NCBI GenBank assembly: GCA_025980465.1 | Contig: JAICXJ010000031.1 | Span: 1 to 36,245, forward strand | DNA from: Frankiales bacterium | GTDB taxonomy: Bacteria > Actinomycetota > Actinomycetes > JAFAQI01 | Direction: 5' to 3' | DNA length: 36,245 bases | Shown here: positions 8,200 through 34,339 of the stretch, one piece after another | Layout: every line of letters starts with the position of its first letter | How positions within the stretch are numbered: the first letter of the stretch is position 1 | Notes under the pieces: model-generated | Seen by the model: only the letters and a program-made list of their open reading frames with translations | What the model was told of the DNA's origin: nothing | The model's database searches: none | Position numbers and translations under genes: made by a program

Positions 8200-8853
8200 A
8201 TGACCCAACCTCAGACGTTTGCTCTCGGCGCCGAGGTCTTGTGCACGGACGGTGAGGCAGGTCAGCTCAAGCGTGTCGTGCTCGACCCGATCGCACGCGC
8301 GGTCACTCACCTCGCCGTCGAGCCGCAGCATCGAGTGGGCAGCGGACGGCTCGTCCCCGTCGAGCTGGTGGAGTCCACCGAGCCCCAGATCCGGGTTAGG
8401 TGTACCGTCGCCGACTTCGCGGCCCTGGAGGAAGCCGACGAGACCCGGCTCCTGCCGATGGCAAGTGGAGTCTGGGGTTATCGCGGTGATGAGATGCTGG
8501 CGCTGCCGTATTTCGGTCTCAGGCAAGAAGGCATGTCTATGGCCGGCGGTGGCCTGGGTTCTCCTCCACAGGTGTCCACCTTCGACCGGGTGCCGGCCGG
8601 CGAGGTCGAAGTACGCCGCGGAGACCCGGTACATGCGACCGACGGCGCCATCGGACGGGTGCAAGGACTCGTGATCGATCCCAGCGACCATCACGTCACC
8701 CATGTCCTTCTCGACGAAGGCCACCTGTGGGGCAAGAAGCGGGTCGCCATCCCGATCACGTCGGTCGCAGACGTCGCCGACGCGGTGCGGCTTAAGCTCA
8801 GTAAAGACGAGGTGCGCGACCTCCCCGAGATCGACGTGGTCGACCCCAAGTGA
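8200..8853 (+). CDS. Double PRC-barrel domain protein
   Basis: This 217-residue protein contains two PRC-barrel-like domains: residues about 7-80 (GAEVLCTDGEAGQLKRVVLD) and about 125-205 (RRGDPVHATDGAIGRVQGLV, then HVTHVLLDEGHLWGKKRVAIP). PRC barrels are small beta domains that bind RNA, proteins or photosynthetic complexes, so a specific role is unknown. The ATG at 8200 is chosen because AAAGGAG lies seven bases upstream; an in-frame open stretch reaches further back to about 8107 without a ribosome site. Its stop overlaps the GTG of the Tal-Pgi fusion by four bases. It is therefore the first gene of the pentose-phosphate operon and may help organise or regulate those enzymes (inference). 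Confidence 0.8.
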   Translation: MTQPQTFALGAEVLCTDGEAGQLKRVVLDPIARAVTHLAVEPQHRVGSGRLVPVELVESTEPQIRVRCTVADFAALEEADETRLLPMASGVWGYRGDEMLALPYFGLRQEGMSMAGGGLGSPPQVSTFDRVPAGEVEVRRGDPVHATDGAIGRVQGLVIDPSDHHVTHVLLDEGHLWGKKRVAIPITSVADVADAVRLKLSKDEVRDLPEIDVVDPK

Positions 8854-11714: not shown

Positions 11715-11740
11715 CCCGCGTGACGAAACGGAGACGAACG

Positions 11741-12760
11741 ATGCAGATCGGAATGGTCGGGCTCGGACGGATGGGGGCGAACCTGGTCCGGCGGCTGTTG
11801 CCCGCCGGCCACGACTGCGTCGTGTACGACGTCAACCCCGGCCAAGTCCAAGCACTCGCAGCCGAGGGCGCAACCGGCGCCGACTCTCTTGACCAGCTCG
11901 TCGCCAAGCTGGACAAGCCGCGGGCGGTGTGGGTGATGGTCCCGGCCGGGCGGATCGCCGCGGATACGGTGCGTGCGCTCGGCGAACGGATGGACCCTGG
12001 CGACGTCATCATCGACGGCGGCAACTCCTATTACCGCGACGACATCGACCGCGCCGCCCTTCTGGCTGAACAGGGCGTGCACTACCTCGACGTCGGTACC
12101 AGCGGTGGTGTGTGGGGGCTCGAACGCGGTTACTGCCTGATGATCGGCGGCGAAGCTGAGGTCGTTGATCGGCTCCGGCCGGTGTTCGCCGCCATCGCCC
12201 CGGGCATCGACGGCGCGGCTCGCACTCCCGGACGCGACGGTGAGCCCGTCGACGCCGAACGCGGTTACCTGCACTGCGGCCCGGTCGGCGCCGGGCACTT
12301 CGTGAAGATGGTCCACAACGGCATCGAGTACGGCGTGATGGCCGCCTACGCCGAAGGCTTGAACATCCTGAAGAACGCCAACGCCGGCACCATCGAACGG
12401 GAGAACGACGCCGAGACCGCACCGCTGGAACACCCGGAGTACTACCAGTACGACCTCGACATCGCGTCGGTCACCGAGGTGTGGCGGCGCGGCAGCGTGA
12501 TCGCGTCCTGGCTGCTCGACCTGACCGCCGCCGCGCTGGTCGAGTCCCCCGACCTGCACGAGTACTCCGGCAGCGTCTCGGACTCCGGTGAGGGCCGTTG
12601 GACCGCGATCGCCGCGATCGAGGAGAGCGTGCCGGCGCCGGTCCTGCTCACCGCGTTGGCGTCCCGGTTCGGCTCCCGCGGCCTCGACCACTTCGCCGAC
12701 CAGACGCTGTCGGCAATGCGCAAACAGTTCGGGGGGCACGCCGAGAAGCCGGTCCGATGA
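11741..12760 (+). CDS. gnd: 6-phosphogluconate dehydrogenase (decarboxylating), short type
   Basis: This 339-residue enzyme makes ribulose-5-phosphate and NAD(P)H from 6-phosphogluconate. The Rossmann motif is MVGLGRMG (residues 5-12). The substrate loop IIDGGNSYYRDD, the GTSGGVWGLERGYCLMIGG motif and the catalytic K189 with N193 in HFVKMVHNGIEYG are all present. It is the short form of the family (about 300-340 residues, compared with about 470), which in other bacteria often prefers NAD+. The ATG at 11741 is chosen over a GTG seven codons upstream because ACGGAGAC precedes it at good spacing and the protein then starts at the beta strand. The stop overlaps the following HAD gene (ATGA). Confidence 0.95.
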   Translation: MQIGMVGLGRMGANLVRRLLPAGHDCVVYDVNPGQVQALAAEGATGADSLDQLVAKLDKPRAVWVMVPAGRIAADTVRALGERMDPGDVIIDGGNSYYRDDIDRAALLAEQGVHYLDVGTSGGVWGLERGYCLMIGGEAEVVDRLRPVFAAIAPGIDGAARTPGRDGEPVDAERGYLHCGPVGAGHFVKMVHNGIEYGVMAAYAEGLNILKNANAGTIERENDAETAPLEHPEYYQYDLDIASVTEVWRRGSVIASWLLDLTAAALVESPDLHEYSGSVSDSGEGRWTAIAAIEESVPAPVLLTALASRFGSRGLDHFADQTLSAMRKQFGGHAEKPVR

Positions 12761-13434
12761 GGGTGCACGACCCGCTGGCGATCCTGTTCGACATCGACGG
12801 GACGCTGCTCATCACCGGCGGCGCCGGCGCCGCGTCGTGGCGGCTCGCGTTCGACGAGCTCTACGGCATCCCGGCCGACATCGGGCAGTTCACCGACACC
12901 GGCATGACCGACCCCGACGTCGGCCGCAAGACCTTCCAGGCCGTGCTGCACCGCGATCCCGAACGGCACGAGTTCACCAAGCTGCTCGAACGCCGCCTGT
13001 ACTACCTGCACAGCACCGTCGAAGAGTCCAAGGACTACCGGGTGCTTCCTGGCGTCGAGGACCTGCTGCCCACGCTCATCGACGGCGGCTACCAGCTGGG
13101 TCTGGTCACCGGGAACGTCGAAGCCGCCGCGCACATCAAGCTGCACCGCGCGAAGCTCAACCGGTTCTTCTCCTTCGGTGGCTACGGATCGGACTCCACC
13201 GACCGCGGCGAGCTCACCAAGATCGCGCTGCAGCGTGCCGCGCTGGTCTACGGCGAACCCGTCGCCCCCGAGCGGGCGTTCGTCATCGGGGACACCCCGC
13301 ACGACGTGGAAGGCGCGCACGCCGCCGGGATGGCCTGCGTCGGCGTCGGCAGCCACAACTTCACCGTCGCGCAGCTACGCGACGCCGGCGCGGACTACGT
13401 CATGGCCTCGCTAACGGAGGGGTTGCCGTTGTGA
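12757..13434 (+). CDS. HAD-superfamily phosphatase (phosphoglycolate phosphatase-like)
   Basis: This 225-residue hydrolase has the four HAD motifs: nucleophile D12 and D14 in LFDIDGTLL, threonine in LGLVTGN, a lysine in the HIKLHRAKLNRFF segment, and the acidic pair around VIGDTPHDVEGA. The cap between motifs I and II is alpha-helical, as in phosphoglycolate and beta-phosphoglucomutase-like enzymes. The substrate cannot be told; its position between gnd and zwf suggests a sugar-phosphate by-product such as a 6-phosphogluconolactone or phosphosugar repair product (inference). There is no pgl (6-phosphogluconolactonase) gene in the operon, but this is not that fold. The start overlaps gnd, and its stop overlaps zwf. 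Confidence 0.88.
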   Translation: MRVHDPLAILFDIDGTLLITGGAGAASWRLAFDELYGIPADIGQFTDTGMTDPDVGRKTFQAVLHRDPERHEFTKLLERRLYYLHSTVEESKDYRVLPGVEDLLPTLIDGGYQLGLVTGNVEAAAHIKLHRAKLNRFFSFGGYGSDSTDRGELTKIALQRAALVYGEPVAPERAFVIGDTPHDVEGAHAAGMACVGVGSHNFTVAQLRDAGADYVMASLTEGLPL

Positions 13435-14915
13435 CGAGATCGGGGTTGCTGGCGGGTCCTCCGGTGGTACCGCCTGCGCTCCCGGACGATCACGTCATGA
13501 TCCTGTTCGGCGCCACAGGTGATCTGGCGAGGCGCAAGCTGCTGCCCGGCCTGTTCCACCTGGTCGTCGCCGGAATGATGCCCGGCCGCTACCGAATCGT
13601 CGGTTCCGGCCGACCGGAAGACGCGCCGGACACCGAAGCCTTCCGCGCGCATGTGCGCCGCGCGCTCGAACAGTTCGGCCGGCGCGAGGTCCGCGACGAC
13701 ACCTGGAAAACGTTCGCCGAACGCCTGTCCTTCGCTCCGGCCACCGCCGATGATCCGCAGGCGTTGCTGGCGGCGGTCGCCGAAGCCGAGGCCGATCTCG
13801 ACCCAGCTGTCCGCCGGCTGGTCTACCTCGCCGTGCCGCCCCAGGCCTTCGCGCCGATGATCGACATGCTTAGTGCATCGAATCTCACGGAGCGCGCTCG
13901 AGTCGTCATCGAGAAGCCCTTTGGTAGTGACCTCGCCTCGGCCCAAGCATTGAACCGGACACTGCACAAAGGCTTCGACGAGGACCAGATCTTCCGGATC
14001 GACCATTTCCTCGGCAAGGAAGCCGTCCAGAACATCCTGGCGTTCCGGTTCGCCAACGGCCTGTTCGAGCCGGTCTGGAACCGCCGACACGTCGCCTATG
14101 TACAGCTCGACGTTCCGGAGCGGTTGACCATCGAAGGCCGCGCGGGGTTCTTCGAGCAGACCGGCACCTTCCGCGACATGGTGGTGACGCACCTATTGCA
14201 TGTGCTCGGCTTCATCGCTATGGAACCCCCGAGCCGCTTGGACGCTAAGTCGCTGCGCGACGCGACCGGCAAGGTGTTCGACGCGATTAAGCCGATCGAG
14301 CCGGACCGCGCGGTCTTCGGCCAGTACGACGGCTACCGGCGAGAGCTCGGCGTGGCAATCGGATCGACCGTCGAGACCTTCGCCGCGGTCGAGGTCGAGG
14401 TCGACAACCCGCGCTGGTCGGGAGTGCCGTTCTACCTGCGTACCGGCAAGGCAATGGCCGCGAGCCGCCACACAGTGACGCTCGGGTTCAAGGAACCGGC
14501 CCGAGACCTGTTCGCTCGCCTCCCGCACGACGATGGCGTCGCGCACCGTCCTAACGAATTGACCTTCGAGCTCTCCGATCCCGGGGTGATCTGGGTCGAC
14601 TTCCTCGCCAAGATGCCCGGCCCGACCACCACCGTCGGGCCAGCATCGTTGACATTCCGCTACGGCGAGTCTTTCGACGTCACCAATGATCTCGAAGCCT
14701 ACGAACGACTATTACACGACGCGATGCTCGGCGACCACACCCTGTACACACGCGCCGACGGCATCGAACGGCTGTGGGAGGTTTCTGCCCCGCTGCTCGA
14801 AAGGGCCCCGCTGCCGTTGCCGTACCCCCAAGGATCGTGGGGTCCGTCCGCGACCGAGCAGCTTGTTGCGCCCTACTCCTGGCATCTTCCCTATCCCGAC
14901 CGGCCAAATGGCTGA
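13431..14915 (+). CDS. zwf: Glucose-6-phosphate 1-dehydrogenase
   Basis: This 494-residue enzyme oxidises glucose-6-phosphate to 6-phosphogluconolactone and makes NADPH, the entry to the oxidative pentose-phosphate pathway. The dinucleotide motif is GATGDLA (residues 27-33). EKPFGSDLASA carries a substrate lysine, and RIDHFLGKEAVQNI holds the active-site D191, H192 and K196. Full length for the family. The GTG start overlaps the HAD stop (GTGA), with ACGGAGGGG inside the HAD gene as ribosome site. It is the last enzyme gene of the tightly coupled block that starts at 8200; the next gene is 123 bp away. Confidence 0.96.
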   Translation: MTRSGLLAGPPVVPPALPDDHVMILFGATGDLARRKLLPGLFHLVVAGMMPGRYRIVGSGRPEDAPDTEAFRAHVRRALEQFGRREVRDDTWKTFAERLSFAPATADDPQALLAAVAEAEADLDPAVRRLVYLAVPPQAFAPMIDMLSASNLTERARVVIEKPFGSDLASAQALNRTLHKGFDEDQIFRIDHFLGKEAVQNILAFRFANGLFEPVWNRRHVAYVQLDVPERLTIEGRAGFFEQTGTFRDMVVTHLLHVLGFIAMEPPSRLDAKSLRDATGKVFDAIKPIEPDRAVFGQYDGYRRELGVAIGSTVETFAAVEVEVDNPRWSGVPFYLRTGKAMAASRHTVTLGFKEPARDLFARLPHDDGVAHRPNELTFELSDPGVIWVDFLAKMPGPTTTVGPASLTFRYGESFDVTNDLEAYERLLHDAMLGDHTLYTRADGIERLWEVSAPLLERAPLPLPYPQGSWGPSATEQLVAPYSWHLPYPDRPNG

Positions 14916-20322: not shown

Positions 20323-20751
20323 TCAGCCTTCCGCCTCGGACCAGGGGTTCACGAGCGGCAGGTTGAGGGCCTCGAAGTCGGTGATGTTCCGAGTAGCCAG
20401 AGTGGCGTCATGTTGCCGGCAGATCGCTGCGATCTGGACATCGAGCGCGCTCATGGTGCGTCCGCGACGTCGACCGGTCGCCACGATGTCGGCGTAGTGC
20501 GAGCTTGAACGTGAGTCAAAGGGAAGGACGTAGCCACCGAATACGTCGTTGATGACTCGCTCGATCTGCCTGCCGATCGTCTCCTTGCGCCGGCCGCGTG
20601 GGACAACGGCAACCCCAGCGCGGAGTTCGGCGGCAGTGATCGAGGTGATGACGAGCTCCGTGCTGTCCTGGTCGTCTACCCATCGCAGGACGTGCGGCGT
20701 GGGTGTCGGTTTGATCAGTTCGGATAGCACGTTGGTGTCCAGGACGATCAC
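20323..20751 (-). CDS. vapC: PIN-domain toxin, VapC/FitB type
   Basis: This 142-residue PIN ribonuclease has all four acidic residues expected for Mg2+-dependent RNA cleavage: D5 (VLDTNVLSE), E42 (AAELRAG), D104 (SALDVQIAA) and D125 (RNITDF). It is the toxin of a type II toxin-antitoxin pair and would cleave specific RNAs when free. The GTG start overlaps the antitoxin stop by four bases. The closest style is FitB/VapC with the N-terminus MIVLDTNVLSELIKP. The active site is intact, so it is probably functional. Confidence 0.92.
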   Translation of the reverse strand: MIVLDTNVLSELIKPTPTPHVLRWVDDQDSTELVITSITAAELRAGVAVVPRGRRKETIGRQIERVINDVFGGYVLPFDSRSSSHYADIVATGRRRGRTMSALDVQIAAICRQHDATLATRNITDFEALNLPLVNPWSEAEG

Positions 20752-20990
20752 GCGAGGTCCGCGATCCGCGCCTCGCTATCGCGTTCAGGAATCGGAAGGT
20801 CGGCTCCGCCGGCTTCAGTGAACTGCTCGTGGATAAATGTGCCGAGGCGACGAGTTGGTCGGATGCTTCCGACGGCTTCCTGCAGGGCCGCGCGCGCCTC
20901 GGCTTCCATCGATCGGCCGTTCGCGGCTGCTCGACGCCGTAGCCGCGCCTTGACCTCGGGATCCAGGTCGCGGATCACTAACGTCGCCAC
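20748..20990 (-). CDS. vapB: FitA/VapB-like antitoxin with ribbon-helix-helix domain
   Basis: This 80-residue antitoxin begins MATLVIRDLDPEVKARLRRR, a typical Arc/FitA ribbon-helix-helix DNA-binding start, followed by GRSMEAEARAALQEAV. The acidic C-terminal part (about 60-80) would wrap the toxin. The GTG at 20990 is chosen over an in-frame start 10 codons upstream because a near-perfect ribosome site, AGGAGG, lies five bases before it. It is translated first and coupled to the toxin; as a ribbon-helix-helix protein it likely autoregulates the pair through the palindrome at 21026-21046. Confidence 0.92.
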   Translation of the reverse strand: MATLVIRDLDPEVKARLRRRAAANGRSMEAEARAALQEAVGSIRPTRRLGTFIHEQFTEAGGADLPIPERDSEARIADLA

Positions 20991-21305
20991 AGCGCCACCT
21001 CCTGATAGCAACGCTAGCACTCCCTGGGACCTGGCTCGGAGGTCCCGGCCCTCATCGGGGCAGAATCCGTCGGAGTAGATGGGCTCCCCGGCGAGACGCC
21101 ATGTCGGGTTGCGCCAACCTCGTCAATGCCTCCTCGACCATTCGCGTCGACGTACCTGTCGTCGTCCCACCAACGAGCTGAGCCGGCCGGCTCGCCGGAG
21201 AGAGACACGCCCGTTGCTCCGGCTCGGCAGCCCGGGTAAGCAGCATCGGCGCCCGGCCGTGGTCCCGATTCGTTTCCCGTAGGATCCCCCGGGGGTAACG
21301 CAGGG
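20991..21305. other. Intergenic region between vapB and the giant cyclase gene
   Basis: This 315-bp divergent region holds the vapB ribosome site, the palindrome at 21026-21046 and, near the cyclase start, a perfect 10-bp palindrome CCCCCGGGGG (21286-21295). A -10-like TAGGAT (21280-21285) precedes it, with no good -35. Nothing between 21050 and 21270 was recognised. Confidence 0.4.
21026..21046. promoter_or_regulatory. Palindrome upstream of vapBC, likely operator
   Basis: GGGACCT (21026-21032) and AGGTCCC (21040-21046) are exact 7-bp inverted repeats with a 7-base spacer. They lie 36-56 bp upstream of the antitoxin start, where its promoter should be. Ribbon-helix-helix antitoxins bind such palindromes to repress their own operon, so this is the best operator candidate. 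Confidence 0.5.
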
Positions 21306-24300
21306 ATGCCGACCATGACCTGTGCGGGGTGCGGCCACGCCAACGGCGAGAAGGCCCGCTTCTGCGAGAGCTGCGGCAGCCCGCTGTCGCCGCGATGCAC
21401 CTCGTGCGGCGAGGAGTTGTCGGACAGGGCTCGTTTTTGCAGCAGCTGTGGTACGCCGGTGGCCGACGGGGCTGGCGCCACCGCCGCGCTGAAGGTGATC
21501 TCAGTAGTGTTCAGCGACCTCGTCGGTTCGACGGCGCTCCAGGAGACGCTCGAGCCCGAGTCGGTGCGCCGGGTGATGGCCCGCTTCTACGAGGCGATGC
21601 AGGGTGTCGTCAACCGCCACGGCGGAGCGATCCAGAAGTTCATCGGCGACGCGGTGGTGGCGGTCTTCGGCGCACCGGCGGTTGGCGAGGACGATGCGCT
21701 GCGGGCGGTTCGATGCGCCGCGGCAATGGCCAAGGAGCTGGCCGCCCTGAACGACGAGTTCGAGGCGGCCTGGGGCGTCCGGCTCGAGATCCGCACCGGG
21801 GTCAACACCGGCGAGCTCGCGGTCAGCGACGAGGGAATTTTCGTCGGCGACACGATGAACACCGCGGCGCGGCTGGAGCAGGCGGCCGCCGCTGGTGAGG
21901 TGCTGGTAGGCGAGGCGACGTGGCGCCTGATCCGGCACGAAACGGAGCTCGAGGAACTGGCCCCGCTTTCCCTGAAAGGCAAGACCGCGGCGGTTCGCGT
22001 GTGGCGACTCCTCGGGACCGAGACGCGAGGCGCGGCCGCAGCAGCGGCTCCGCTCGTGGGGCGTGACCGGGAGCTTGCGCGGCTACGTGTCGCGCTGGAC
22101 GCCGCGATCGACGCGCGCGCCTGCCGGCTGGTCTCGATCATCGGATCGCCCGGGCTGGGCAAGTCCCGGCTCGCGGCCGAGTTCGCGCAGGCGATCGACG
22201 GTGAAGCGACGGTCCTCGACGGGCATTGCGAACTGAGTGGGGAGGGGATCACGTTCCTGCCCGTCGCTGAAGTGCTGCGCGGCGCGGCGTCGATCGGTGA
22301 GGCGGATCTGCCCGAACAGGTGATCGCGAAGCTTGCGGCCATCGTCGAGGACGTGCCCGACGGCGACCGGGTTGCCGCGGGCGCTGCGAGCCTGCTGGGC
22401 GCCGGCTCACCCACCGCACCCGAGGAGACCTTCTGGGCGGTACGAACCGTATTTGAGTCACTCGGCCGAAAGCGGCCCCTGATGATCGTGCTCGACGACG
22501 TCCACTGGGGTCAGCCGATGTTCCTCGATCTGATCGAGCATCTCGTGGAGTGGGTCCGCGACGCCGCGATCCTGCTGGTCGCCCTTGCGCGGCCCGAGCT
22601 TCGCGAGGTGCGAGAAGTCCTGGCCGCCGCAGGGCGGCGTGCCGTCGACGTGATCGAGCTCGACGCGCTGCAGCCCGAGCAGAGCCGCGAGATCGTCGGC
22701 GGACTGCTTGGTCAGGTCGAGCTCCCGGATCAGTTACTCGCGAAAATTCTCGAGACCACCGGGGGCAACCCGCTGTTCATCGGCGAGCTGCTACGAATGC
22801 TCGTCGACGAGGGGCTGCTCGAGCGCGCCGGTGAGGTATGGGTCTTCGCCGGCAACGCCGAGACGATCCAGGTGCCCCCCACCATCCAGGCGCTGCTCAC
22901 CGCTCGGATCGAACGGCTTCGCGCTGGCGAGCGGTCCGTCGTCGAGCGGGCGGCGGTGATCGGCAAACAGTTCTACCGGGGCGCAGTCGCAGAGCTCGTT
23001 GCTCCGCCGGTCCGCTCGGGGATCGACGGCCACCTGGAGACGCTGCGGCGCAAGGACATCGTCGAGCCCGAGGGCACCTACTGGATCGACGAGCCGGTGT
23101 ACCGCTTCCACCACGTCCTGATCCGCGACGCCGCCTACCACCTGCTGCTCAAGGAGGCGCGCGCGGAGCTGCACGAGCGGTTCGCCGACTGGCTCGAGGA
23201 CAAGGCCGGTGAGCTGGTCGGCGAGCACGAGGAGGTGATCGCCTACCACCTGGAGCAGGCGCACGAGTACCGCCGGCAGCTCGGCCCGCTCGATGGGCGA
23301 GGAACGGCGCTCGGATCACGCGCTGCGCAGCACCTGGCGTCCGCTGGCCGGCGAGCGCTGGCCCGGGAGGATCTGGCCGCCGCAGCCAACCTGCTCCAGC
23401 GAGCGCTCGATCGCAAGGCGGAGGTCGCCGAGGAGGAGATCCGCTGGGACCTGGCCGACGCGCTGCTGTCCGCGGGCGACACCGCCGCAACCCACGCGGT
23501 CGTCGAGCGTCTAAAGGGTCCGCGCGGCGACGTGCTGGCGTCGCAACTCGCGGTGCTGACCGGCACCGACGTGCTCGAGGATGTCGTTGAACGCGTGACG
23601 GCGGCGACTACCGCTCTCGCAGCCCTCGGCGACGACCGCGGGGAGGCGAAGGGACACCATGTCGCGGCTCAGGTGCAGGCGCAGCTGGGACAAGTCGCCG
23701 ACGTGGAGGCCTCGCTCGACCGGGCGTTGCTGGCAGCCCGAAAGGCCGACGACCGGCGCCGGATCACCGCCGTGTTGGCGGCGGCGCCGCGGGCGGCGCT
23801 GTGGGGACCGTCCCCGGTGATGAGGGCGTCAGGTCGATGCCTGGACGTCGTGCGCATCCTGCGAATGAGCTCCGGAAACCGCCATGTCGAGCCGGTGGCG
23901 CTGCGCTGCCAAGCGGTGCTCGAGGCGATGCGCGGCCGGTCGGACGCCGCTCGCGAGATCCTCGCCGGCGGTCGCGCGACACTCGAGGAGCTGGGGCTGA
24001 CCTTCGAGCTGCACGAGCTCGGAATGCATGCCGGGATCGTCGAGTTGCTGGACGGCAAGCCGGGCGACGCCGAGGGCTTGCTGCGCGCCGCCCGGGACGG
24101 GTTCGCAACGCTCGGAGCGTCCGTCAGCGCCGCCGCGTCCGCGGCACTACTCGCCCGGGCGCTCGCCGATCAGCGGCGCGACGACGAGGCGATCGCCGAG
24201 ACCGAGTACGCCGAGGAGCATGCGGGCGGCGACCTGAAGACCACGATCACCTGGCTCGGCGTCCGCGCCGAAGCGCTGGTGCGCCGCGACCGGACCGAGG

Positions 24301-27062
24301 ACGCACTGGGCCTCGCCCGTCGCGCGGTAGCGCTGGCCGACCCGACGGATGCGTTGGCGGACAAGGCGGACGCGTACCTGGCACTCGCGCGGGTGTGCCG
24401 CGAATCGGGCCGGTCCGAGGAGGCGCGCGAAGCAGCAGCCGCCGCGCGGGCGCTGTATGCGGCAAAGGACCACGCGATCGGCGTGCGGTGGGCCGGCGAG
24501 CTGGCGTCAGGCCCCGCGCGTTCCGATCCGGCTGATGTGACCCCCGTTACCACGACGGCTGCCGCGGTCGACGAGCCGGAGCTGACCGCGTTCGCCGCCA
24601 GGTTCGGTGCGGTCATGGCCGTGCATGACGTCGAGGGTCTCGCCGCGCTGTGCGCCCCCGGCTGGGTGCTGATCGACCACCGCCAGCTCACGCGGGACAT
24701 GCACGATGACGTCCGGTCATGGATCAGCCCGATCTTCGAAGGGTCCCTCGACATCCGCCTAGACGTCGACGAGGTGATCGCAGCGGCACCGGGCGTCGTC
24801 GCGCTCCGGACGGCGTGGCGTGGGCACAGCAGCGACGGTGGCGGCGAGTTCGAGCTTCCGGTCGGGAACGTCCTCGCGATTCGCGGCGGACTGCTCGAGC
24901 GTGCGGAAGTATTCGACGTCGACGCCGAGACCTCGATGCGGGCGTGCTTCGAGGACCTCCGCGGCCGGATGCTGCTCGGAGACCGGCCGCCGGAACGCTG
25001 GTGGCGGACCTTCGTCGAGGCCTTCGCCCGACAGGACGCGTCCTGGCTTGGCGACCTGTACGCCGAGGACTACGTGCAGGTCGACCGTCGCGCGCTCGCC
25101 TGGGAGGACGTCCACGGTCGCGAAGCCGCGGTGCACCTGCTCGAATCGGCCTGGCGGATAGCGGCGGACGTCCGTTGCGTCATCGACCAGGTGCTCGCCT
25201 GTGACGACGAGCGAATCGCCGTGCGCTGCCGGTTTGCCGGCACGGCGCTCGACGGAGCCGGACCGATGGAGATTGCCCTTGGTTATGCCGGCGTGGTGAA
25301 CGATGCCATTGCTGTCCGGGGCGAGCAGTTCGACCCCCTCGACCGCGACGGGATGCTTGCCCGATACCGCGAGCTTGGCGGGGCGCTGGGTGCACGTGCG
25401 GTTCGGCCGCCCGAGAGGTTGCTGCGCGAGTACTTCCGACGGTTCGAGGCGCGCGACGTCGAGGCCCTGAGTCAGCTCGTGACCGACGACGTCTTCACTG
25501 CGGAGCATCGCCGCATCCGATTCGGCGCCGGGCAGGGCCGGGAGCGATTCGCCCGGACGCTTGCCTCGATCATCGCTGTCACGGCCGACTGGCACATCAC
25601 CATCGAGGAGGTCATCGCTAGCGACGAGCGCACGATCGTTGCGCAGGTCGCCTATCGCGGCACGAGTTCGCAGTATCACGTCGGCGCCACCGAGGTCATC
25701 ATCGGCGAGGTGTATGCGCTGCGCGACGGCGTCTTCTGCTCGATCGATCTCTACGAGCCCGACGACCGGGCGGCGATGATCGCCCGCTACGTCGAGCTGG
25801 GCGGCGGGCTGGGTCAGCTCGGCGACACTGAGCCCGAGCGGCTTTGCGCCGAGTTCGCCCGATGCCACGCCCGCCGGGACCTCGACGGGATGCTGGAACT
25901 GACCGACGACGACTGCCGGTGGATCGACCGGCGCGGCCTCGCGTGGGAGCCGACCGTCGGCCGTGACGGTGTCGCGGCGGTGACGGTCTCCGCCTGGCAC
26001 GACATCGGGCACATCCGGGTCGAGTTCGACGAGGTGCTGGCCGTTTCCGATCGGGTGCTGGCGGTGCGGTTCAGATGGGTCGGCCAGGACGGCCGCGGCG
26101 GCGCCTTTGAACTGCCGGCCGGACAAGTGAGCGTCTACGAGAACGGTCGCTGCATCTCGGTCGACCAGTACGACGCCGACGACCGCGAGGCGATGCTCGC
26201 CCGGTTCCGCGAGCTCGACGGCTCGCGATCGGTGCTCGGCGACCGTGCGTCGGAGCGTGTCCTCGCCGAGCTCCAGGCGGTGCTGAACGGGCGCGACTAC
26301 CGACGCCTCGCCGAGCTGATCAGCCAGGACGCGTACATCGTCGATCACCGACCGCTCGGTTATGACGACGTGCGCGGTCGCGATCAGTGCGTGCGAGATC
26401 TGCGGACGGTGTACGACGCCTCACCCGACGTCCATCTCGACTTCGACGAGGTTCTCGCCGCAGACGACCGGGTCGCCGTCACGTGGCTCGCCGTTCGCGG
26501 CCGCGGCGTGAAGGCCGGCGAGCTCGAGACGGCGTACCTGGCTGTCAGCCTGATCGAGGACGGCTTGTTGGTCGGTCTGGACTACTACCCGACCGACGAC
26601 TGCCGGACCGCCATCACCCGGTACGCGGAGCTCGGCGGCGGCGGCGGGCTGCTCGGCGACCGGCCACCCGAAGAGTTCTACCGGCGCTGGCTGCCGCTGT
26701 CGGCCGCTGCCGATGTCGATGCCTTGACCAACCTGGTGGCCGAGGACTTCGTACGGATCGATCACCGATCCTTGGGCTGGGAACCGTTACACGGCCGCGA
26801 TGCGAACGTCGCACTGTGGAGCTCGGCCTATGAAGGCATCGCTCACCTCCGGATGGAGATCGACGAGGTGCTGGCATGCGACGAGCGCGTCATCGCGCTG
26901 CGGTTCACCTGGCACGGCGTTGCGATCGGGGGTCCGGGCGAGTTCGAGGTCGGCGTCGGCCAGGTCAACGTGATCGAGGACGGGATCTGGCGCAGCTGCG
27001 ACCAGTACGCGCCCGAGGACCGGGAGGCGATGATGCTGCGATTCGCCGAGCACAGGCGTTAG
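21306..27062 (+). CDS. Giant class III adenylate cyclase/AAA ATPase/TPR protein with NTF2-like repeats
   Basis: This 1918-residue cytoplasmic protein combines several modules. A double zinc ribbon (C6, C9, C20, C23; C31, C34, C45, C48) comes first. A class III cyclase catalytic domain follows (about 64-235): metal aspartates D71 (FSDLVGST) and D115 (FIGDAVVAVFG), ATP-selecting K111 and D182, and N185 and R189 in GDTMNTAARLE. All key residues are present, so cAMP synthesis is expected. Next is an AAA/STAND-like ATPase (about 250-600) with Walker A GSPGLGKS (280-287) and Walker B VLDD (D397, D398), then a TPR-like helical region (about 620-1085). The C-terminal third is six NTF2/SnoaL-like repeats. 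The first three parts form a known actinobacterial architecture; the six-fold tail is unusual. The start is ATG 21306 or ATG 21315. It stands alone as a transcription unit. Confidence 0.9.
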   Translation: MPTMTCAGCGHANGEKARFCESCGSPLSPRCTSCGEELSDRARFCSSCGTPVADGAGATAALKVISVVFSDLVGSTALQETLEPESVRRVMARFYEAMQGVVNRHGGAIQKFIGDAVVAVFGAPAVGEDDALRAVRCAAAMAKELAALNDEFEAAWGVRLEIRTGVNTGELAVSDEGIFVGDTMNTAARLEQAAAAGEVLVGEATWRLIRHETELEELAPLSLKGKTAAVRVWRLLGTETRGAAAAAAPLVGRDRELARLRVALDAAIDARACRLVSIIGSPGLGKSRLAAEFAQAIDGEATVLDGHCELSGEGITFLPVAEVLRGAASIGEADLPEQVIAKLAAIVEDVPDGDRVAAGAASLLGAGSPTAPEETFWAVRTVFESLGRKRPLMIVLDDVHWGQPMFLDLIEHLVEWVRDAAILLVALARPELREVREVLAAAGRRAVDVIELDALQPEQSREIVGGLLGQVELPDQLLAKILETTGGNPLFIGELLRMLVDEGLLERAGEVWVFAGNAETIQVPPTIQALLTARIERLRAGERSVVERAAVIGKQFYRGAVAELVAPPVRSGIDGHLETLRRKDIVEPEGTYWIDEPVYRFHHVLIRDAAYHLLLKEARAELHERFADWLEDKAGELVGEHEEVIAYHLEQAHEYRRQLGPLDGRGTALGSRAAQHLASAGRRALAREDLAAAANLLQRALDRKAEVAEEEIRWDLADALLSAGDTAATHAVVERLKGPRGDVLASQLAVLTGTDVLEDVVERVTAATTALAALGDDRGEAKGHHVAAQVQAQLGQVADVEASLDRALLAARKADDRRRITAVLAAAPRAALWGPSPVMRASGRCLDVVRILRMSSGNRHVEPVALRCQAVLEAMRGRSDAAREILAGGRATLEELGLTFELHELGMHAGIVELLDGKPGDAEGLLRAARDGFATLGASVSAAASAALLARALADQRRDDEAIAETEYAEEHAGGDLKTTITWLGVRAEALVRRDRTEDALGLARRAVALADPTDALADKADAYLALARVCRESGRSEEAREAAAAARALYAAKDHAIGVRWAGELASGPARSDPADVTPVTTTAAAVDEPELTAFAARFGAVMAVHDVEGLAALCAPGWVLIDHRQLTRDMHDDVRSWISPIFEGSLDIRLDVDEVIAAAPGVVALRTAWRGHSSDGGGEFELPVGNVLAIRGGLLERAEVFDVDAETSMRACFEDLRGRMLLGDRPPERWWRTFVEAFARQDASWLGDLYAEDYVQVDRRALAWEDVHGREAAVHLLESAWRIAADVRCVIDQVLACDDERIAVRCRFAGTALDGAGPMEIALGYAGVVNDAIAVRGEQFDPLDRDGMLARYRELGGALGARAVRPPERLLREYFRRFEARDVEALSQLVTDDVFTAEHRRIRFGAGQGRERFARTLASIIAVTADWHITIEEVIASDERTIVAQVAYRGTSSQYHVGATEVIIGEVYALRDGVFCSIDLYEPDDRAAMIARYVELGGGLGQLGDTEPERLCAEFARCHARRDLDGMLELTDDDCRWIDRRGLAWEPTVGRDGVAAVTVSAWHDIGHIRVEFDEVLAVSDRVLAVRFRWVGQDGRGGAFELPAGQVSVYENGRCISVDQYDADDREAMLARFRELDGSRSVLGDRASERVLAELQAVLNGRDYRRLAELISQDAYIVDHRPLGYDDVRGRDQCVRDLRTVYDASPDVHLDFDEVLAADDRVAVTWLAVRGRGVKAGELETAYLAVSLIEDGLLVGLDYYPTDDCRTAITRYAELGGGGGLLGDRPPEEFYRRWLPLSAAADVDALTNLVAEDFVRIDHRSLGWEPLHGRDANVALWSSAYEGIAHLRMEIDEVLACDERVIALRFTWHGVAIGGPGEFEVGVGQVNVIEDGIWRSCDQYAPEDREAMMLRFAEHRR
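24564..27059 (+). repeat. Six tandem NTF2/SnoaL-like protein repeats (about 139-140 residues each)
   Basis: The C-terminus of the cyclase protein is built of six homologous units starting near residues 1087, 1226, 1366, 1506, 1645 and 1784. Most begin with GDRPPERxxxxF and share a core resembling LAWExxHGRxA, then DEVLAxDDRVxAVRxxWxG, then a closing segment like DQYDxDDREAMLARYxELGG. The near-constant period and whole-unit conservation show duplication of one domain. Secondary-structure order (helices, then long strands) and SnoaL-like patterns support an NTF2-type cone fold, a ligand-binding or protein-binding fold. Units 2-6 are alike in motif order; unit 1 and unit 3 are the most diverged. 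Confidence 0.75.
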
Positions 27063-31191: not shown

Positions 31192-31364
31192 GGTGTCAGG
31201 GTGTGCTGCAGCATGGCCCCTGTCGTCAGCCTGCAGAGCGATTTTCCGGTAGCCCCTGCGACGACCGACGAGTCGTTCTTTTGGACGACGTCCGGCCCGG
31301 TACGACGCCGTACGCTCGCCAGGTGTGCAGAGCAGAAAGGGCCGTACCGTCGAACCTGCGTGCC

Positions 31365-33680
31365 ATGGGGAGCTGGTCGTCGTACGTCGACGGTGTGGTT
31401 GCCGGCGCCCTGTCCGCAGTTGTGCTCGGCCTCTGGGTAACCCGATCCTCGAACTCCGCCCTGACCGCTTCGGCAGTTGTCTGCGGGTTGATGACGACGA
31501 CGACGGTGGCATGGCGCAACCGGGCTCCTGAAGTCGCCGTGACGGTCGCCGGTGCCGGAGCCATCGGTGCCGAATGGCTTGCGAGCACTCACCGGCCGCA
31601 TGCCTTCGACTTGGTTGTCGTGTTGGCGGTATTGCTCGGGATGTACACAGCCGGCGCGAGGGGCGTCAACCGCCGCCAGGTCGCGGCGCTGGCCGCCCTC
31701 GTGATCTACGGGATTGCGGTGTGCGCCGTGGCCGCCATCGTCACCAGTTCGCTGAGCGTTGCGAACGTCATCGAATACGCACTTCCAATAGTTGTCGTAC
31801 CGGCCTCAGTCGGCTGGCTCGTCGCACGCCACCGCAGCCTGACAGCACAACTTGCGGCGGCGACGGCGCAGCTTCGTGCCGGAGAGGAGATGCGCCTCGC
31901 CCTTGTCTCCGAGAGCGAGCGCAACCGAGTAGCCAGGGAGCTGCACGATGTCGTCGCGCATGCCGTCAGCGTGATGGTTGTGCAGGCGGGGGCGGCCCGC
32001 ATCACCCTCACCTCCGAGCCGAACCTGGCCCGGGCAGCACTCGACGAGGTGACGCAAGCGGGACGCGCCGCGATGGCCGAGCTGCGTCGAATCATCGGAG
32101 TGGGCTTCGAGCGCCACAGCGAAACAGCCCCTAACGGGATAGCGGGGATCGACGCTCTGGTCGAGCACCGTCGCGCCGGCGGGCTCGTGATTCGGATGAG
32201 CGTGACCGGAAGCGAGCGGGCAATGCCGGCCGCAGTCGACGTCACGATCTACCGCCTGGTGCAAGAAGCGCTGACCAACATCGCCAAGCACGCCCGGCCC
32301 GCGGAAGCCGACGTGAGCGTGGCGATCGAGCAAGGAGCGGTGGCGGTGCGCGTCCGCAACTCAGCACCGAAAGGTCCAGCTCGCTCGATCGACTCCGGTG
32401 GGTCTGGGCAAGGCCTGGTAGGGATGCGAGAGCGCGTGCAATCCTGCGGCGGGCAGTTGTCCTACGGTCCGCTCCACGGCGGGGGTTTCGAGGTGCGTGC
32501 CCGGATCCCGCTGACCACTGCACGGGACGAACCATCGCGTGGACGGCCGTCGAGCGTGCTGACGGCCCGGATTCGCGCTCGCGGGCCGTGGCTGGCGATG
32601 GTCGCCGCGATGTGCATATTGGGTGCCGACGCCGATGCCAGCCCCGATCGCGGGCAATCGCTGGCTCTCAACATCGGCTTGGCCGTCGCCATGGCGGTTC
32701 CGCTGATCTGGCGCCGCAGGTCATCGCTCCTATTTCTTGTCGCGGTCAATCTCCTGGCCGTCCCGATCAGCAACTCGGTCGGGTCGGACAGCGACCTCCT
32801 CCTGCTGAGCACCTACGTATTCGTCGTACCCGTCTGGGCGGTCGCCGCCTGGTCTACCTCGGGTCCGGCCGTCACTGGGCTAGTCCTCGCCGGCGCCTTC
32901 AACGCGGGCGAATGCCTGTACTGGCATTTCGGCGTTACCGCCATAGCCGCCAACCTGTTGTTCACTGGATTGCTCTGGGGCGCAGGCCGAGTGGTGCGCT
33001 CGCAGCGGCTCCTAGCCGCTGACCTCGAGCGGACTCACTCCCGCCTCGCGGCCGAGCAACAAACACGGGAGCTGCTGCGACTGGCTGCGGAGCGCACTCG
33101 ATTGGTCGCCGAACTGCACTCGCTCGTCGATGAGCAGGTGAGCGCCATGGTCGGCGCGGCAGAGTCCACCAGGAGCATCATCGGCGCGGACTCCGCCGCA
33201 TGCGCTGCGTCGATCGCCGCCATCGAGCGGGCCGGGCGCGAGGCGCTGGCCCGGTTGCGGGAAATACTCGGGCTCCTCCGCACGGAACACGACCCGGAAC
33301 GGCTATCACCATTGTTCGGTGTTGAGCACCTCCACGACCTGGTCTCCCGCTATCGCCCATCGGGCAGCCCGACTGAGCTCGACGTGAGCGGTTCTCCGGT
33401 GCCACTTCTCGGCGGACTCGACGTCCTGGCCTACCGAATCGTCGAAGACGTGCTGGCCGCTGCGGGCGACATGGCGCCCTCCGTGGCGGTCAGCCTGCGA
33501 TTCACCGAGGACTACCTGGGTCTGGAGTTCGTCGTCGCCGGGTCACTCGTTGATTGGGCGCCGCGCGACACCCAAGCGAAGGTCCAACGACGGGGCGGTC
33601 GGGTCCGCCGTGAGCGCGTCGGTGTCCGGGAGCACATCATTGTCGAGTTACCACTAGCGTTGGCGCTCGTCAGTCAATGA
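31365..33680 (+). CDS. Two-component histidine kinase with a tandem second kinase module
   Basis: This 771-residue membrane kinase contains two copies of the NarL-type layout. Module 1: about five transmembrane helices (1-150), HisKA_3 with phospho-histidine H194 in VARELHDVVAH, and an intact ATPase domain with N box EALTNIAKHA and G box GQGLVGMRERV. Module 2 repeats the order: membrane helices (about 405-540), a HisKA_3-like segment with H585 in VAELHSLVDEQ, then an ATPase-like domain whose N box is degenerate (VEDVLAAAGDMA, no asparagine) and whose G box is not clear. Module 2 therefore cannot bind ATP normally but may dimerise or be phosphorylated. ATG 31365 is chosen because the membrane region starts there; the ribosome site is weak and the start is uncertain. 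The stop overlaps the response regulator (ATGA). Confidence 0.88.
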   Translation: MGSWSSYVDGVVAGALSAVVLGLWVTRSSNSALTASAVVCGLMTTTTVAWRNRAPEVAVTVAGAGAIGAEWLASTHRPHAFDLVVVLAVLLGMYTAGARGVNRRQVAALAALVIYGIAVCAVAAIVTSSLSVANVIEYALPIVVVPASVGWLVARHRSLTAQLAAATAQLRAGEEMRLALVSESERNRVARELHDVVAHAVSVMVVQAGAARITLTSEPNLARAALDEVTQAGRAAMAELRRIIGVGFERHSETAPNGIAGIDALVEHRRAGGLVIRMSVTGSERAMPAAVDVTIYRLVQEALTNIAKHARPAEADVSVAIEQGAVAVRVRNSAPKGPARSIDSGGSGQGLVGMRERVQSCGGQLSYGPLHGGGFEVRARIPLTTARDEPSRGRPSSVLTARIRARGPWLAMVAAMCILGADADASPDRGQSLALNIGLAVAMAVPLIWRRRSSLLFLVAVNLLAVPISNSVGSDSDLLLLSTYVFVVPVWAVAAWSTSGPAVTGLVLAGAFNAGECLYWHFGVTAIAANLLFTGLLWGAGRVVRSQRLLAADLERTHSRLAAEQQTRELLRLAAERTRLVAELHSLVDEQVSAMVGAAESTRSIIGADSAACAASIAAIERAGREALARLREILGLLRTEHDPERLSPLFGVEHLHDLVSRYRPSGSPTELDVSGSPVPLLGGLDVLAYRIVEDVLAAAGDMAPSVAVSLRFTEDYLGLEFVVAGSLVDWAPRDTQAKVQRRGGRVRRERVGVREHIIVELPLALALVSQ

Positions 33681-34339
33681 CCGTTCGGGTGCTGATTGCC
33701 GACGACCAGCAACTCCTGCGCGCCGGCTTCCGACTCATCCTCGAACGCCAGCCCGATCTCGAAATAGTGGCCGAAGCGACCAACGGCATCGAGACCGTCA
33801 ACTTGGTCCGGCAGCTCAGACCGGACGTCGTACTCATGGACATTCGTATGCCAGAACTCGACGGAATCCAAGCCACCCGGCTGATCCTCGCCGACCAAGC
33901 CACAGCCCACACCCGCATCGTCATCCTCACGACGTTCGACCTCGACGAGTACGTCTACGAAGCCCTGCGCGCTGGCGCGAGCGGCTTCCTGCTCAAGGAC
34001 CTGCCGCCCGAACAGCTCGCCGCCGCCGTGCTCACAGTCGGCCACGGCGACACGCTCCTCGCCCCCACCGTTACCCGACGTCTCATCGAGCACTTCACCG
34101 AAAGCGCCCGTCTCCCTGGTCCGAATCCCATCGTCAGTGACCTGACCCCGCGGGAGCTGGAAGTCCTGAGGTTGCTGGCGACAGGGATGTCGAACGCCGA
34201 GATTGCGGTTGCGCTCTTCATTGCCGAGACCACCGTCAAGACCCACATCGCGCGCCTGCTGACCAAGCTCCGCCTTCGCGACCGGGTGCAAGCGGTCGTC
34301 TTCGCCTATCAAAACGGCATTGCCGCAGCTGATCGATGA
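33677..34339 (+). CDS. NarL/LuxR-family response regulator
   Basis: This 220-residue protein has a receiver domain (1-120) with the acidic pocket D9/D10, phosphoacceptor D55 in VVLMDIRMP, T85 and K107 in FLLKD. The C-terminal LuxR-type helix-turn-helix (about 150-215) reads LTPRELEVLRLLATGMSNAEIA and then AETTVKTHIARLLTKLRLRDR. All phosphorylation residues are intact. It overlaps the kinase gene by four bases, so the kinase with H194 is its partner. Likely targets are nearby, perhaps the divergent membrane protein at 30754-31191. Confidence 0.95.
   Translation: MTVRVLIADDQQLLRAGFRLILERQPDLEIVAEATNGIETVNLVRQLRPDVVLMDIRMPELDGIQATRLILADQATAHTRIVILTTFDLDEYVYEALRAGASGFLLKDLPPEQLAAAVLTVGHGDTLLAPTVTRRLIEHFTESARLPGPNPIVSDLTPRELEVLRLLATGMSNAEIAVALFIAETTVKTHIARLLTKLRLRDRVQAVVFAYQNGIAAADR

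What the first reader, a model, noticed from the sequence alone, without database searches (positions are those of the whole stretch)
21306..27062. Giant adenylate cyclase ending in six tandem NTF2/SnoaL-like domains
Class III cyclase plus AAA/STAND ATPase plus TPR is a known actinobacterial architecture. Here it carries a double zinc ribbon in front and six near-equal 139-140-residue repeats behind, adding about 830 residues. All cyclase catalytic residues are intact. NTF2/SnoaL folds bind small hydrophobic ligands or partner proteins, so the array could be a multivalent ligand sensor or scaffold that sets the nucleotide switch and cAMP output. I know of no described system with this layout.
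Basis: partly seen in the sequence, partly recalled or inferred. Interest (0 to 1): 0.8.

Follow-up and report, generated by a model that had tools for sequence, protein, structure and literature searches.

The report
Giant cyclase with tandem NTF2 array
A very large bacterial signalling enzyme that should make the messenger cAMP ends in six copies of a small-molecule-pocket fold, and it belongs to an apparently undescribed family, found in about 40% of sampled Mycobacterium species, whose copies of that fold vary from 3 to at least 27 and evolve much faster than the enzyme itself.

Summary
Window 21306-27062(+) is one intact 1918-aa ORF: double zinc ribbon, class III cyclase with all six catalytic residues (D71, K111, D115, D182, N185, R189), AAA_16/STAND ATPase with intact Walker motifs, TPR, then six NTF2/SnoaL units (138, 140, 141, 139, 139, 132 aa). 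All six match Pfam SnoaL_2 (E 2e-57 for the protein). A two-unit AlphaFold model (pLDDT 94) gives two NTF2 cones, closest to steroid-binding Rv0760c, ketosteroid isomerase and limonene epoxide hydrolase (Z 14-15). It is a small member of a family in 80 of 198 sampled Mycobacterium species, plus Solirubrobacteraceae, Acidimicrobiales and other actinobacterial MAGs, with 3 to at least 27 units in proteins up to about 5000 aa. In mycobacteria two unit types alternate and arrays rearrange mostly in steps of two. Heads stay 92-95% identical while arrays are shuffled and units evolve 3-4 times faster (dN/dS 0.2-0.4 against 0.06-0.11). Best reading: a STAND-gated adenylyl cyclase whose NTF2 array is a modular, fast-changing sensor arm. 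Ligand and cAMP output are inferred. The window's contig is probably misbinned.

The parts
21306..27062 (+). whole gene, 1918-aa cyclase-STAND-TPR-NTF2x6 protein (P0001)
21321..21452 (+). double zinc ribbon, aa 6-49
   Evidence: Pfam DZR 39.2 bits, cut-off 27.3; same head in L103 and L058 and L032
21495..21992 (+). class III adenylyl cyclase catalytic domain, aa 64-229; D71, K111, D115, D182, N185, R189
   Evidence: solved relatives CyaB 3r5g and others
22050..22553 (+). AAA_16 / STAND NTPase core, aa 249-416; Walker A GSPGLGKS at aa 280, Walker B MIVLDDVHW at aa 393; GNPLF motif at about aa 487 lies just downstream
23655..24197 (+). TPR-region signature block, aa 784-964, containing ALWGPSP..RASGRCLDVVR; family marker
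24573..24986 (+). NTF2/SnoaL unit 1, aa 1090-1227
24987..25406 (+). NTF2/SnoaL unit 2, aa 1228-1367
25407..25829 (+). NTF2/SnoaL unit 3, aa 1368-1508
25830..26246 (+). NTF2/SnoaL unit 4, aa 1509-1647
26247..26663 (+). NTF2/SnoaL unit 5, aa 1648-1786
   Evidence: modelled
26664..27059 (+). NTF2/SnoaL unit 6, aa 1787-1918
   Evidence: modelled

Best explanation
The protein is a soluble signal-gated adenylyl cyclase built on a STAND-type switch. The N-terminal class III cyclase is the output, the AAA_16 ATPase with its TPR region is the switch, and the C-terminal string of NTF2/SnoaL domains is the sensor arm. Proposed mechanism: in the ADP-bound resting state the TPR and NTF2 arm holds the ATPase closed and the cyclase domains apart. 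Binding of a hydrophobic small molecule, or of a partner protein, to one or more NTF2 units releases the arm. ATP exchange then drives self-association, which pairs the cyclase domains (class III active sites form at a dimer interface) and raises cAMP. The array is modular. Lineages gain, lose and replace units, in mycobacteria usually as A-B pairs, so the same switch and output can be retuned to new inputs. Shown here: domain order, intact catalytic and nucleotide-binding motifs, NTF2 fold, family distribution, variable copy number, faster evolution of the array. Inferred: auto-inhibition, ligand binding, oligomerisation, cAMP production.
For: All cyclase residues for metal, substrate (K/D, adenylate type) and transition state are present and conserved in the zinc-ribbon branch. 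Walker A and B and the GNPL motif are intact and conserved across the family. Each modelled unit folds as an NTF2 cone: pLDDT 94, Z about 14-15 to the steroid-binding Rv0760c, ketosteroid isomerases, limonene epoxide hydrolases and designed steroid binders. The head is conserved while the array turns over: window against L042 is 62-68% identical in the head and 32-49% in the units. Among close mycobacterial pairs the head is 92-95% identical with dN/dS 0.06-0.11, while best-matching units have dN/dS 0.19-0.40 and lie at shifted positions. Unit number ranges from 3 to at least 27. Precedent: a single C-terminal SnoaL_2 domain contacts and controls the output domain in ECF41 and ECF56 sigma factors, including M. 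tuberculosis SigJ (PMC7730460).
Against: No ligand, cAMP production or oligomer has been shown. The TPR hits are weak. The six-unit model failed (pLDDT 55, pTM 0.26, only three sequences), so how the units pack, and whether pockets stay open or pair up, is unknown. BTAD-headed relatives have a different cyclase sequence at the substrate position (R where the zinc-ribbon branch has D), so their output may differ. Unit dN/dS stays below 1 on average, so positive selection is not shown; relaxed constraint on a spacer or scaffold would look similar.
Confidence: 0.5

Rival explanations
1. The NTF2 array is a scaffold or oligomerisation arm (NTF2 folds often dimerise, as in the CaMKII hub domain). 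It sets the size or clustering of the cyclase complex or tethers it, and has no pocket chemistry of its own.
For: A/B alternation and mostly two-unit steps in mycobacteria fit A-B pseudo-dimers as the structural repeat. Length varies widely without loss of the head. Units stay under purifying selection (dN/dS 0.2-0.4).
Against: In the window's own branch all units are one related type and array growth is not clearly paired (parity p = 0.11). A pure scaffold would not obviously need sequence turnover several times faster than the head.
Confidence: 0.27
2. The units are enzymes (ketosteroid-isomerase, polyketide-cyclase or epoxide-hydrolase type) and the protein couples a metabolic reaction to cAMP signalling.
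For: Closest solved folds are enzymes. Two-unit tandem SnoaL-like epoxide hydrolases exist (MonB, LasB). The Asp of the conserved D-[HR]-R motif aligns with an Asp of MonB in HMMER's alignment.
Against: Only a few positions are invariant among the six units (E3, D19, L26, R37, V68, A70, G84, G91, E94). The Asp of the motif is Glu in unit 3. The helix-1 position that I take to match the KSI catalytic Tyr (mapping from my own knowledge) is F, F, Y, F, L, W in units 1-6, so a full catalytic set is not kept. Six to 27 copies in one chain is unlike any enzyme I know of.
Confidence: 0.1
3. The family is a conflict or self-recognition system: the array is a hypervariable recognition surface and the cyclase makes an alarm nucleotide, comparable in logic to fungal NWD STAND proteins or Pycsar.
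For: Head conserved while the array is shuffled and replaced between close relatives: L089 against L091 has head 94% and array 62%, reciprocal-best units at several different offsets, patchy presence in 40% of Mycobacterium species with up to three copies.
Against: Average unit dN/dS is below 1. PADLOC only recognises the generic cyclase domain as PycC-like, and no dedicated effector gene was recognised next to the window gene. The neighbouring PIN/RHH pair looks like an ordinary toxin-antitoxin module and is not shown to be linked.
Confidence: 0.13

Closest known systems
Mclx proteins of M. tuberculosis (Rv0386, Rv1358, Rv2488c): cyclase - AAA/NB-ARC - LuxR HTH (PMC4452763)
   Same: N-terminal class III cyclase followed by a STAND-like ATPase
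   Different: Here a zinc ribbon or BTAD precedes the cyclase, there is no LuxR HTH, and the C-terminus is an NTF2/SnoaL array
ECF41/ECF56 sigma factors with one C-terminal SnoaL_2 domain, e.g. SigJ (PMC7730460)
   Same: A C-terminal SnoaL_2 domain appended to an output module and regulating it
   Different: One domain rather than 3-27; the output is a sigma factor, not a cyclase
TOMM kinase/cyclase fusion, TIGR03903
   Same: The cyclase-AAA-TPR stretch aligns (250.8 bits over aa 76-658)
   Different: Far below the curated cut-off (705.75); no kinase domain; the array is absent from that model
Tandem SnoaL-like epoxide hydrolases MonB and LasB
   Same: Two NTF2/SnoaL units in one chain
   Different: Only two units, biosynthetic enzymes, no cyclase or ATPase
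Rv0760c, a steroid-binding KSI-like protein of M. tuberculosis (PDB 2z77)
   Same: NTF2 cone, best Z (15.4, 2.2 A over 116 residues)
   Different: Free-standing single domain, 11% identical
Fungal NWD/HNWD STAND proteins (own knowledge)
   Same: STAND switch with a repeat array that turns over much faster than the rest
   Different: WD40 repeats rather than NTF2 units, and a different effector; resemblance of logic only, not tested

Membership tests
Class III nucleotidyl cyclase | Catalytic domain over the Pfam gathering score | tested here: met
   PF00211 66.5 bits against cut-off 21.9
Class III nucleotidyl cyclase | Two metal Asp, substrate Lys/Asp, transition-state Asn/Arg | tested here: met
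   D71, D115, K111, D182, N185, R189
Class III nucleotidyl cyclase | Makes cAMP | not testable with these tools
   needs an assay
STAND NTPase (AAA_16) | AAA_16 domain, Walker A, Walker B and downstream GNPL motif | tested here: met
   PF13191 78.4 bits; motifs at aa 280, 393 and about 487, conserved in the family
STAND NTPase (AAA_16) | Nucleotide-driven oligomerisation switch | not testable with these tools
   needs biochemistry
NTF2-like / SnoaL superfamily | Sequence match of each unit over the SnoaL_2 cut-off | tested here: met
   six stretches 41.8-48.5 bits against cut-off 27
NTF2-like / SnoaL superfamily | Cone fold of alpha-beta order H-H-E-H-E-E-E-E-H | tested here: met
   two-unit model (units 5-6) pLDDT 94.1; Z about 14-15 to NTF2-like structures; units 1-4 rest on Pfam only, the six-unit model being low confidence
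Mclx (cyclase-AAA-LuxR) | C-terminal LuxR-type HTH | tested here: not met
   no GerE match up to E = 1
TOMM kinase/cyclase fusion (TIGR03903) | Score over the equivalog cut-off, with kinase domain | tested here: not met
   250.8 against 705.75 bits; no kinase domain
Pycsar | PycC cyclase with adjacent PycTM or PycTIR effector | tested here: inconclusive
   generic PycC matches only (best 63.3 bits); no such effector recognised by Pfam among neighbours, but neighbours were not scanned with PADLOC
Ketosteroid isomerase enzymes | Catalytic Asp base with Tyr/Asp oxyanion hole in every unit | tested here: inconclusive
   motif Asp is near-conserved (Glu in unit 3); the supposed Tyr position is not conserved; not mapped on coordinates

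The most novel reading that the evidence does not exclude
A widespread, undescribed class of bacterial STAND receptors in which a tandem array of ligand-pocket (NTF2) domains, 3 to at least 27 per chain, acts as a rapidly reshuffled recognition repertoire feeding one cyclic-nucleotide output: a bacterial counterpart, with a new repeat fold, of plant NLR and fungal NWD recognition arrays.
Probability: 0.25. Interest if true: 0.85.

Novelty: new variant of a known kind. Interest (0 to 1): 0.62.

Why it matters
Cyclase-STAND-TPR proteins are abundant in actinobacteria, but what they sense is mostly unknown. Here the probable sensor is a folded, individually expressible domain with a small-molecule pocket, repeated many times. 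Ligand discovery can therefore start from single units. The family covers about 40% of sampled Mycobacterium species, including named non-tuberculous ones, and Pfam recognises only 2 of 21 units in a typical mycobacterial member, which may be why it has been overlooked. The contrast between a frozen head and a reshuffled array makes the question 'what is being recognised?' directly testable.

Tried and rejected
(1) Chance or low-complexity repeat: rejected, six independent Pfam hits. (2) TPR or PPR repeat: rejected, the model is an alpha-beta cone. (3) Unique or chimeric gene: rejected, family in isolates and complete chromosomes. (4) Recent DNA-level tandem duplication in the window: rejected, units are 47-56% identical in DNA. 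(5) search for related loci with the six-unit alignment and then with the array found nothing, because the array is too variable; the TPR block was the right probe. (6) One whole-protein class search failed on the server. (7) A mixed 33-row pair alignment was unusable (601 columns) and was replaced by a clean one. (8) The whole-array AlphaFold job gave low confidence, so I draw nothing from it about packing. (9) Per-position variability of units showed no clear face of the sheet, so I make no claim that pocket residues are the variable ones; the crude 3-mer unit typing there found strict alternation in 35 of 64 arrays, the first units being divergent. (11) Tetranucleotide profile could not settle the origin of the contig. 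(12) Eight literature searches found no description of the family; subscription journals are mostly not held, so absence is not proof.

Full report
1. Check of the observation. Window 21306-27062(+) is an uninterrupted ORF of 1918 aa. Pfam gives, in order, a double zinc ribbon, Guanylate_cyc, AAA_16, weak TPRs and SnoaL_2 in six stretches with E 2.1e-57. Unit boundaries, taken from the recurring '[PE]PER' start, are aa 1090, 1228, 1368, 1509, 1648 and 1787, with lengths 138, 140, 141, 139, 139 and 132. The units are 25-44% identical in protein and 47-56% in DNA, so they are old duplications, not recent copies. The own genome has 24 cyclase domains, but only this ORF has more than one SnoaL_2 match.

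2. Catalytic and switch motifs. The cyclase keeps both metal Asp (D71, D115), the adenylate-type substrate pair (K111, D182) and the transition-state pair (N185, R189); all eight zinc-ribbon-type members scored have the same six letters. Walker A (GSPGLGKS, aa 280), Walker B (MIVLDDVHW, aa 393) and a GNPLF motif (about aa 487) are present and conserved in nearly all family members. NCBIfam's TOMM kinase/cyclase model matches the cyclase-AAA-TPR part but at about a third of its cut-off.

3. Fold of the units. Units 5-6 were modelled from a 13-row alignment of window, L042 and L043 unit pairs: mean pLDDT 94.1, pTM 0.83, two successive cones of order H-H-E-H-E-E-E-E-H. Against solved structures the best matches are NTF2-like: Rv0760c of M. 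tuberculosis with a bound steroid derivative (Z 15.4, 2.2 A over 116 residues), ketosteroid isomerases, limonene epoxide hydrolases, polyketide cyclases and designed steroid binders. A profile of the six units also reaches MonB and LasB, which are two-unit SnoaL-like epoxide hydrolases. A six-unit model was of low confidence; its secondary structure repeats a similar order six times, but nothing can be said of packing.

4. It is a family. A profile of the units hit a 3564-aa open frame in a genome of the same class. A protein query from the TPR region to the array then found 11 genomes, the relatives mostly with frames of 1800-4900 aa. The TPR block around 'AALWGP[SN]PV..AGGRCLDVVR' is about 50% identical between the window and mycobacterial members and retrieved 190 relatives in GTDB r220, of which 79 loci were kept: mostly Mycobacterium in the broad sense, including M. 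asiaticum, M. scrofulaceum, M. colombiense, M. genavense and several Mycolicibacter, plus two Solirubrobacteraceae MAGs (the closest, 72-74% in this block), an Acidimicrobiales MAG and other Actinomycetota MAGs. In a sample of the genus, 80 of 198 species carry it, some with two or three copies, open frames mostly 1300-5260 aa. Other classes hold weaker homologues of the TPR block in frames of about 1070 aa, too short for an array.

5. Two heads, one plan. The window, L042, L058, L063, L103 and mycobacterial L032 have zinc ribbons before a canonical cyclase; most mycobacterial members have a BTAD/SARP head and a variant cyclase. The order cyclase - AAA - TPR - NTF2 array is constant. Unit counts run from 3 (L042) to 27 (L039, 4935 aa). 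A profile made from the window's six units alone already finds 25 units in L039 and 22 in L040 (first pass), so the count does not depend on circular model building. Pfam itself recognises only 2 units in the 21-unit L044.

6. Array evolution. In mycobacterial arrays two unit types alternate: units of the same parity are 35-48% identical, neighbours only 15-19% (permutation p = 0.0005-0.0075 in the four mycobacterial arrays of 10 or more units tested). Complete mycobacterial-type arrays are odd-numbered in 51 of 70 cases. Reciprocal-best units of related proteins are displaced by even steps, except in comparisons with L056. So the unit of gain and loss is usually a pair. In the window's branch the units of P0001, L042 and L043 largely group together apart from the mycobacterial ones, and alternation is only suggestive (p = 0.11): arrays appear to have expanded separately in different lineages.

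7. Head against array. Between the window and L042 the cyclase, ATPase and TPR parts are 62-68% identical, the array 32-49%. In 21 close mycobacterial pairs (heads 92-95% identical) head dN/dS is 0.06-0.11, while reciprocal-best units have dN/dS 0.19-0.40 and a mosaic of near-identical and replaced units; one further pair is nearly identical throughout. M. colombiense GF28 against GF76: head 94% over 1293 aa, array 62% over 1938 aa. Many of these are draft assemblies, but the contrast also holds for the complete chromosomes behind L046 and L049. The array is under purifying selection on average, yet several times less than the head and with unit turnover.

8. Mechanism. The layout is that of a STAND switch: effector, NTPase, then superstructure-forming sensor. 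I propose that ligand or partner binding to the NTF2 arm releases the ATPase, which assembles and pairs the cyclase domains. Shown: anatomy, motifs, fold, distribution, evolutionary contrast. Inferred from the families: need for cyclase pairing, NTPase switch. Inferred without test: the ligand and auto-inhibition. A regulatory C-terminal SnoaL_2 domain has precedent in ECF41/ECF56 sigma factors (PMC7730460). Rivals are a dimerising scaffold, tandem enzymes, and a recognition or conflict system; the last is the most novel reading and is not excluded.

9. Compared with what is known. The closest described architecture in mycobacteria is Mclx (cyclase-AAA-LuxR; PMC4452763), which lacks the array and has an HTH that is not found here. 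I found no paper on the NTF2-array cyclases in the held library, which is not the whole literature. I file this as a new variant of a known kind (actinobacterial cyclase-STAND receptors), not as a new kind.

10. Caveat on the host. The window lies on contig C93 of a MAG placed in the class of Mycobacterium, but its gene for a fused transaldolase-phosphoglucose isomerase differs from that genome's own separate pair on C72 (41-44% identical), fused versions were found only in other classes, and the cyclase's nearest relatives are Solirubrobacteraceae. C93 is probably misbinned, or a transferred island. This does not affect the family.

Noticed in passing
window 1-36245: The contig is probably misbinned or a transferred island: its fused transaldolase-PGI (8850-11714) duplicates a separate tal/pgi pair on the genome's C72, and fused versions were found only in other classes of the phylum.
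   Followed up: partly
window 20323-21020 (-): PIN-domain protein preceded by a small ORF (20748-21020) that reads like a ribbon-helix-helix FitA/VapB-type antitoxin: a probable toxin-antitoxin pair just upstream of the cyclase gene.
   Followed up: no
window 8850-14915: Pentose-phosphate run: fused transaldolase-PGI, 6PGD-like dehydrogenase, and a G6PD ORF that as listed starts 172 bases inside the preceding gene, so its long N-terminal part may be a mis-chosen start.
   Followed up: no
window 31203-34339: Histidine kinase ORF of 825 aa with Pfam matches only up to aa 438; the remaining C-terminal part has no Pfam match; followed by a LuxR-type response regulator at 33677-34339.
   Followed up: no
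L063:3610-14358: In L063 four inter-unit gaps exceed 90 aa, suggesting units missed by the profile or a further unit type.
   Followed up: no
L036/L115 (same gene) and L054:7091-10927: Some mycobacterial copies look broken or lack the array: G205's copy (L036, L115) has a TGA within the match and L054 ends right after the TPR region with no units.
   Followed up: no
BTAD-headed members, e.g. L017, L039, L064: Their cyclase has R where the zinc-ribbon branch has the substrate-binding D and a 2-residue insertion before the second metal Asp (GEGD), similar to what I recall of Rv0386-type cyclases; substrate choice may differ.
   Followed up: no
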